Source of the DNA: Bdellovibrio sp. GT3
GTDB lineage: Bacteria > Bdellovibrionota > Bdellovibrionia > Bdellovibrionales > Bdellovibrionaceae
Length of the DNA: 64,000 bases
Reading direction: 5' to 3'
NCBI RefSeq assembly: GCF_037996765.1
Contig: NZ_JBBNAD010000005.1
Coordinates: 590,001-654,000, forward strand
The number at the start of each line of letters is the position of its first letter. The first letter of the stretch is position 1. The notes beneath the pieces are model-generated. The model did no database searches, was not told the DNA's origin, and saw only the letters and a program-made list of their open reading frames with translations. This document shows positions 14,888 through 30,474 of the stretch, one piece after another. The position numbers were made by a program, and so were the translations under genes.

Positions 14888-15187
14888 TTAGTTTAGTTTT
14901 TTAACACGAATTTTGTAGTTATCAATTTTCTTCTTAAGAGTATTGCGATTGATGCCAAGCATCTGAGCAGTCTTTACTTGATTGCCATTGTACGCACGTA
15001 GAGCAAGCTCAAGAAGTGGTTTTTCCACTTGTTCGATAACTACATTGTACAAACCGTTCAATTCAACTTGCGCCTCTTTTTGCTGAGCGAAAAGAACTTC
15101 GAGTTTGCTTTTAACAAGCTTTTCCAAGCTTACAGACTGAAGATTAGCGACAAAAAGATTATCTGAACTGTTAAGGTTCGGCGTCAT
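14888..15187 (-). CDS. Fis-family DNA-binding protein
   Basis: A 99-residue protein ending in a Fis-type helix-turn-helix (GNQVKTAQMLGINRNTLKKKI, about residues 67-88), the same fold as the C-terminal domain of NtrC-type activators. The N-terminal half would form the dimerising helices. GGGAG precedes the ATG. Fis proteins bend DNA and act as nucleoid or gene regulators, so this is a second candidate nucleoid-type protein in the window besides the histone. It could equally be a dedicated regulator. Confidence 0.85.
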   Translation of the reverse strand: MTPNLNSSDNLFVANLQSVSLEKLVKSKLEVLFAQQKEAQVELNGLYNVVIEQVEKPLLELALRAYNGNQVKTAQMLGINRNTLKKKIDNYKIRVKKLN

Positions 15188-29156: not shown

Positions 29157-29261
29157 CGGCATGGGATGTTGCGCCGCAAAAACGGATTTCCCATTGTCAA
29201 TTATAGGTCCCATATGCAAACCTTTTACTGTTCAATTTTCAACTAAGGATGGAGAGTTATC

Positions 29262-29456
29262 ATGGCAGAAGTACTTGTTGTAACTAGCAAAGTAAAAAAA
29301 CTTATCAAAGAAAAAGGCGGCATGAACACTTCTGCTGAAACTATCGACGTTCTCAGCAAAGCAATCGAGCAACTTTGCCTAAAAGGCGTTGAATCTGCAA
29401 AAGCAGATGGCCGTAAAACAGTTATGGCTCGCGATATCGTTATCGATCACCTTTAA
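29262..29456 (+). CDS. Bacterial histone (single histone fold, HMF/CBFD family)
   Basis: A 64-residue protein that is a histone fold from end to end: a short first helix (SKVKKLIKEKG), a loop with the conserved Asn-Thr-Ser, the long central helix (AETIDVLSKAIEQLCLKGVESAKADG), then the strand-loop RKTVMARDIV and a last helix. I recognise it as Bdellovibrio Bd0055 (HBb), reported as an abundant chromatin protein that coats DNA edge-on instead of wrapping it. A GGATGGAGAG ribosome site precedes the ATG and a strong terminator follows, so it is a short single-gene transcript, fitting high expression. The only cysteine is in the central helix. Confidence 0.95.
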   Translation: MAEVLVVTSKVKKLIKEKGGMNTSAETIDVLSKAIEQLCLKGVESAKADGRKTVMARDIVIDHL

Positions 29457-29480
29457 TTTTTGAATTAAAGTTGAAAGCAA

Positions 29481-29512
29481 AAAACCCACGGTGAAGACTG
29501 TGGGTTTTTTTT
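29481..29512 (+). terminator. Intrinsic terminator after the histone gene
   Basis: Stem AAAACCCAC (29481-29489) with GTGGGTTTT (29500-29508), loop of ten, followed by a long T run. Confidence 0.9.
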
Positions 29513-29541: not shown

Positions 29542-30474
29542 ATGAAATTTAAGGTTGGATCCGCCGGAGTCATACTTCTTTTGTTCTGTTTATATCTCTA
29601 TCTCAATAAAACAAAGATCGTGGAAGTTCCTCAACCAGTTGTTCTAAGCGCCGCCACGACCGCACAAGTTCCTGTGGCATCGGAAACGGAAAGTTCTCTT
29701 TTAACACTGGAAGAGGTTCGCGAAATCGCATTGTCCAAGAACAAGCAGGCAGGGAATACTCAGCGTGACTTTTCTCAAGTGATTCCTAAAACAACAGATC
29801 AATCAGCCAGTGGAGACTATCCTGGATTTGAGTTTGAAGATGGAGTGGCCGTCATAGAAGGTGATATCGTTTTGGGTGAGCCAAGGCCTGGGCAAAAGTA
29901 TCAAGGTTTCACTCAGCCTCTTATGCTTTGGCCAAATGGCGTGGTGCCATTCTTCATCCAAGGAGATGTCGAAAACCCCACTCGAATTATTCAAGCGATG
30001 GCAGAATTTGTGGACTCGGGAATCTCTTTTGTTCCCTATATAGATCAAGAAGATGTTCTTGTTTTTCAAAATGGCACAGGAAATTGCAAATCATACGTAG
30101 GAAGAATCGGTGGAAAACAACCACTCTGGGTCGCCCCTGGATGTGGAACCAAAGAAATCACTCACGAGATCATGCACGCCCTGGGATTTATCCACGAGCA
30201 AAACCGCAATGACAGAGATGCATTTATCGATATTCAATGGGCGAACATCGACGAAAATGCCAAAGTTAATTTCGAAAAATTTCCAATAGAAATGATGAAA
30301 GCTAATGGCCTTGGTGCATTCGATTACCAGTCACTCATGTTATACCCACCATCAATGTATTCTAAAAATGGCGAGACGATGAGATCTCTACAACAGGGAA
30401 AATCAATTTCTCCCTCGTACTCGCTGAGTACGGGCGATCTTTTAAGACTAAATCAACTCTCGAAAAAAGAATAA
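29542..30474 (+). CDS. Membrane-anchored astacin-type (M12A) metalloprotease
   Basis: A 310-residue zinc protease. An N-terminal hydrophobic anchor (about 7-21) precedes a propeptide in which IEGDIVLGE carries Asp108 in the place of the astacin aspartate switch (FxGD). The catalytic domain has the full zinc motif HEIMHALGFIHEQ: His208, Glu209, His212, His218. The Met-turn is SLMLY, keeping Met and the Tyr ligand but with Leu for the usual His. Cys182 and Cys201 could form one disulfide. GGAGGG precedes the ATG; it ends one base before the convergent ligA. A role in prey digestion is inference. Confidence 0.93.
   Translation: MKFKVGSAGVILLLFCLYLYLNKTKIVEVPQPVVLSAATTAQVPVASETESSLLTLEEVREIALSKNKQAGNTQRDFSQVIPKTTDQSASGDYPGFEFEDGVAVIEGDIVLGEPRPGQKYQGFTQPLMLWPNGVVPFFIQGDVENPTRIIQAMAEFVDSGISFVPYIDQEDVLVFQNGTGNCKSYVGRIGGKQPLWVAPGCGTKEITHEIMHALGFIHEQNRNDRDAFIDIQWANIDENAKVNFEKFPIEMMKANGLGAFDYQSLMLYPPSMYSKNGETMRSLQQGKSISPSYSLSTGDLLRLNQLSKKE

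What the first reader, a model, noticed from the sequence alone, without database searches (positions are those of the whole stretch)
29262..29456. A eukaryote/archaea-type histone in a bacterium
The whole 64-residue gene product is one histone fold (HMF/CBFD type). The long central helix and the closing strand-loop with Arg-Lys-Thr are clear in the translation. I recognise it as the Bdellovibrio histone (Bd0055/HBb), known as a major chromatin constituent with edge-on DNA binding. Single-gene transcription with a strong ribosome site and terminator agrees with an abundant protein. The nearby Fis-type gene (14888) offers a possible second nucleoid protein to compare with.
Basis: partly seen in the sequence, partly recalled or inferred. 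Interest (0 to 1): 0.85.

Follow-up and report, generated by a model that had tools for sequence, protein, structure and literature searches.

The report
Known Bdellovibrio histone (HBb/Bd0055 ortholog)
This gene encodes the small histone of Bdellovibrio, one amino acid different from a protein already crystallised with DNA and shown to be a main nucleoid protein, so it is real but already described.

Summary
ORF 29262-29456 (+) encodes a 64-aa single histone-fold protein. It is 63/64 identical, end to end, to Bd0055/HBb of Bdellovibrio bacteriovorus (PDB 8FVX, 8FW7, 8CMP, 9EZZ, 9F0E; E about 2e-34). The only difference is G20 in place of Q20, at a position that is also Q or E in other Bdellovibrio. 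All published DNA-contact, RD-clamp and dimer-core residues are present and do not vary in any of 24 genomes of the genus. The gene has a strong ribosome site, its own conserved upstream region, a strong terminator, and the same neighbours as in what I take to be strain HD100. Its "edge-on" mode is only one of two published models; a later study found that dimers bend DNA, like HU. Additional result: this genome lacks the second, longer zinc-finger histone (the Bd3044 type, found in 7 of 24 genomes of the genus), so HBb is its only detected histone; it also has four HU/IHF-family genes. Nothing here is new in kind. Verdict: already known, an ordinary ortholog of a remarkable protein.

The parts
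29262..29456 (+). HBb/Bd0055-type bacterial dimer histone, 64 aa
   Evidence: phmmer to 8FVX/8CMP, 63/64 identical; PF00808 over cut-off; all 24 genomes of the genus have it
29192..29227 (+). conserved upstream element (window: CATTGTCAATTATAGGTCCCATATGCAAACCTTTTA), probable promoter or 5' leader; no standard sigma-70 match within it
   Evidence: aligned in 24 genomes of the genus; TATGCAAACCTTTTA occurs exactly once in this genome
29247..29256 (+). ribosome-binding site GGATGGAGAG
   Evidence: read from sequence; conserved in the genus
29479..29510 (+). intrinsic terminator-like hairpin with U-run
   Evidence: RNA fold -19.5 kcal/mol, z -3.4

Best explanation
The gene is the ortholog of Bdellovibrio histone HBb (Bd0055). 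Two chains form a handshake dimer of truncated histone folds. The dimer grips the DNA backbone at minor grooves through T8-S9-K10, K12 and K16 of helix 1 and the L1-L2 loops (N22, T23, S24, K52, T53, R57), without sequence preference, and bends the DNA (about 84 degrees over 36 bp in the published simulations) without wrapping it. It thereby acts as a major, probably essential, nucleoid protein expressed mainly during growth inside prey. Shown here: sequence identity, conservation of every listed residue, single copy, neighbourhood. Taken from published work on strain HD100: structure, DNA binding, bending, abundance, failure to delete. Inferred: that the same holds in this strain.
For: 63/64 identity to crystallised Bd0055/HBb. 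No variation in the genus at 20 published contact, clamp and dimer positions (residues from PMC11317129). The single difference G20/Q20 is at a position that is G, Q or E within the genus. Conserved order (a 719-aa gene, murD-like, metallophosphoesterase, histone, ligA, gatC, gatA) in two other Bdellovibrio genomes; the histone stays between the metallophosphoesterase and ligA also in genomes of another genus and another family of the order. Present in 176 of 197 genomes searched. Published abundance, nucleoid enrichment and failed deletion: PMC10627809, PMC11317129.
Against: No expression or nucleoid data for this strain. The general Pfam histone model is only marginally passed. The straight-filament model (PMC10627809) remains a published alternative to bending.
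Confidence: 0.95

Rival explanations
1. Same histone, but in the cell it coats straight DNA as a dense sheath (end-on/edge-on nucleohistone filament) instead of bending it.
For: Co-crystal 8FW7, EMSA ladder and no end-to-end FRET, PMC10627809.
Against: Tethered particle motion compaction, ring closure, supercoil constraint and a second DNA interface, PMC11317129.
Confidence: 0.15
2. A sequence-specific transcription factor with a histone fold (CBF/NF-Y like) and not a global nucleoid protein.
For: The Pfam family that matches also contains CBF/NF-Y subunits.
Against: DAP-seq of HBb shows genome-wide binding without a motif, and the protein is the most abundant one in the nucleoid fraction (PMC11317129, PMC10627809).
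Confidence: 0.03

Closest known systems
HBb / Bd0055 of Bdellovibrio bacteriovorus (UniProt Q6MRM1; PDB 8FVX, 8FW7, 8CMP, 9EZZ, 9F0E)
   Same: 63 of 64 residues, length, all DNA-contact and dimer residues, gene neighbourhood
   Different: G20 instead of Q20; this genome lacks the longer second histone
FtF histone HLp of Leptospira perolatii (PDB 9QT0)
   Same: alpha3-type histone with short helix 3, RKT motif
   Different: forms tetramers that wrap about 60 bp (PMC12701072); sequence match weak (E 0.003)
Archaeal HMfA/HMfB
   Same: histone fold, RKT loop and RD clamp
   Different: longer helices 2 and 3, wraps DNA in hypernucleosomes; weak match (E 0.06 to 0.35)

Membership tests
Bacterial dimer histone (HBb/Bd0055 type) | High sequence similarity to Bd0055/HBb over full length | tested here: met
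   63/64 identical
Bacterial dimer histone (HBb/Bd0055 type) | RKTxxxRD loop with RD clamp (R51, D58) and augmenting D49 | tested here: met
   present in the translation, no variation in 24 genomes of the genus
Bacterial dimer histone (HBb/Bd0055 type) | S9-K10 motif and helix-1 lysines | tested here: met
   T8 S9 K10 K12 K16 present, no variation in the genus
Bacterial dimer histone (HBb/Bd0055 type) | Dimeric, not tetrameric, in solution; bends DNA | not testable with these tools
   shown for the HD100 protein in PMC11317129
Pfam CBFD_NFYB_HMF (PF00808) | Score above the curated cut-off | tested here: met
   23.1 against 21.4 bits, although the genome-wide run reported no match
NCBIfam archaeal histone NF043032 | Score above the curated cut-off | tested here: not met
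   31.6 against 50 bits

The most novel reading that the evidence does not exclude
In this strain HBb is the only histone, since the longer zinc-finger histone (Bd3044 type) is missing. HBb might therefore carry all histone functions here, and comparing Bdellovibrio with and without the second histone could show what that one does.
Probability: 0.5. Interest if true: 0.25.

Novelty: already known. Interest (0 to 1): 0.12.

Why it matters
Bacterial histones overturned the view that bacteria lack them, and HBb is the best studied example. This copy adds one more ortholog, with near-complete conservation of the working residues; the discovery itself was published in 2023-2024.

Tried and rejected
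Family search of the whole genome with PF00808 and DUF1931 for further histones: no second one. Search with the 188-aa zinc-finger histone of a relative: only the window gene matched significantly. Looked for a sigma-70 promoter: the only match was no better than chance. Searched the genome for copies of the conserved upstream motif as a shared regulatory site: one exact copy, and two-mismatch matches at the level of the reversed control. A first alignment of the relatives mixed strands and was discarded; one search replaces it. Structure prediction was not run because a 98% identical crystal structure exists.

Full report
What is there. The ORF at 29262-29456 (+) has an ATG, a good ribosome site and a TAA stop, and encodes 64 residues. 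Against solved structures it matches the Bdellovibrio histone Bd0055/HBb over its entire length with one difference, G20 for Q20. The Pfam histone model is passed only narrowly, and the genome-wide family search did not report it, so anyone relying on the general histone profile alone could miss it.

Conservation. Of 197 genomes searched, from genus to phylum (the window's own included), 176 encode a match; all 24 of the same genus do, at 89-100% identity, and members of other families in the phylum at roughly 50-65%. In the genus only 11 of 64 positions vary, nearly all conservatively, and none of the 20 positions that the literature names for DNA contact, RD clamp or dimer core changes. Nucleotide differences from the window gene are mostly synonymous. 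The order metallophosphoesterase - histone - ligA - gatC - gatA is kept in two other genomes of the genus, one of another genus in the family and one of another family in the order. G006, whose contig length of 3,782,950 I recall (from memory, not tested) as that of strain HD100, carries the Q20 version.

How it works. [quoted passage not shown] PMC11317129). The two groups differ on geometry: a sheath of dimers along straight DNA, or bending by single dimers. The later paper and its follow-up, which come from overlapping groups, favour bending. I adopt bending as more likely. It is classed among "bacterial dimer" alpha3 histones (PMC11390915).

Expression signals. The gene stands alone between a gene that ends 105 bases upstream and a terminator-like hairpin, so single-gene transcription is plausible. 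No standard sigma-70 promoter is recognisable, but about 35 bases upstream of the gene (TTGTCA..., TATGCAAACCTTTTA) are conserved across the genus, and the latter motif is unique in the genome. This fits a gene-specific promoter or leader; it was not resolved.

Other nucleoid proteins. The second histone of some Bdellovibrio is a 170-190 aa reading frame with an N-terminal cysteine-rich, ZZ-like finger and a C-terminal histone fold. It is present in 7 of 24 genomes of the genus and absent here. I identify it with Bd3044 from its length, its occurrence and its presence in the genome taken for HD100; this is an inference, and Pfam does not recognise its finger above cut-off.

Verdict. Real, correctly identified, already known.

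Noticed in passing
window 29192-29227: Strongly conserved non-coding element upstream of the histone gene in 24 Bdellovibrio genomes, with TATGCAAACCTTTTA as its core; function unresolved.
   Followed up: partly
L116, L118, L119, L121, L122: Second histone with a cysteine-rich (ZZ-like) N-terminal finger, patchy in the genus (7 of 24 genomes) and missing from the window's genome.
   Followed up: partly
window 29542-30474: Astacin-family (M12A) metalloprotease next to the histone; found at the same place in G006 but not detected at this place in the close relative G022.
   Followed up: no
phylum search, genomes such as G144-G146, G152-G155, G159-G160: Several families of the phylum gave no match to this histone, which suggests loss or strong divergence there.
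   Followed up: no
window 14888-15187: 99-aa Fis-type HTH_8 protein on the minus strand.
   Followed up: partly
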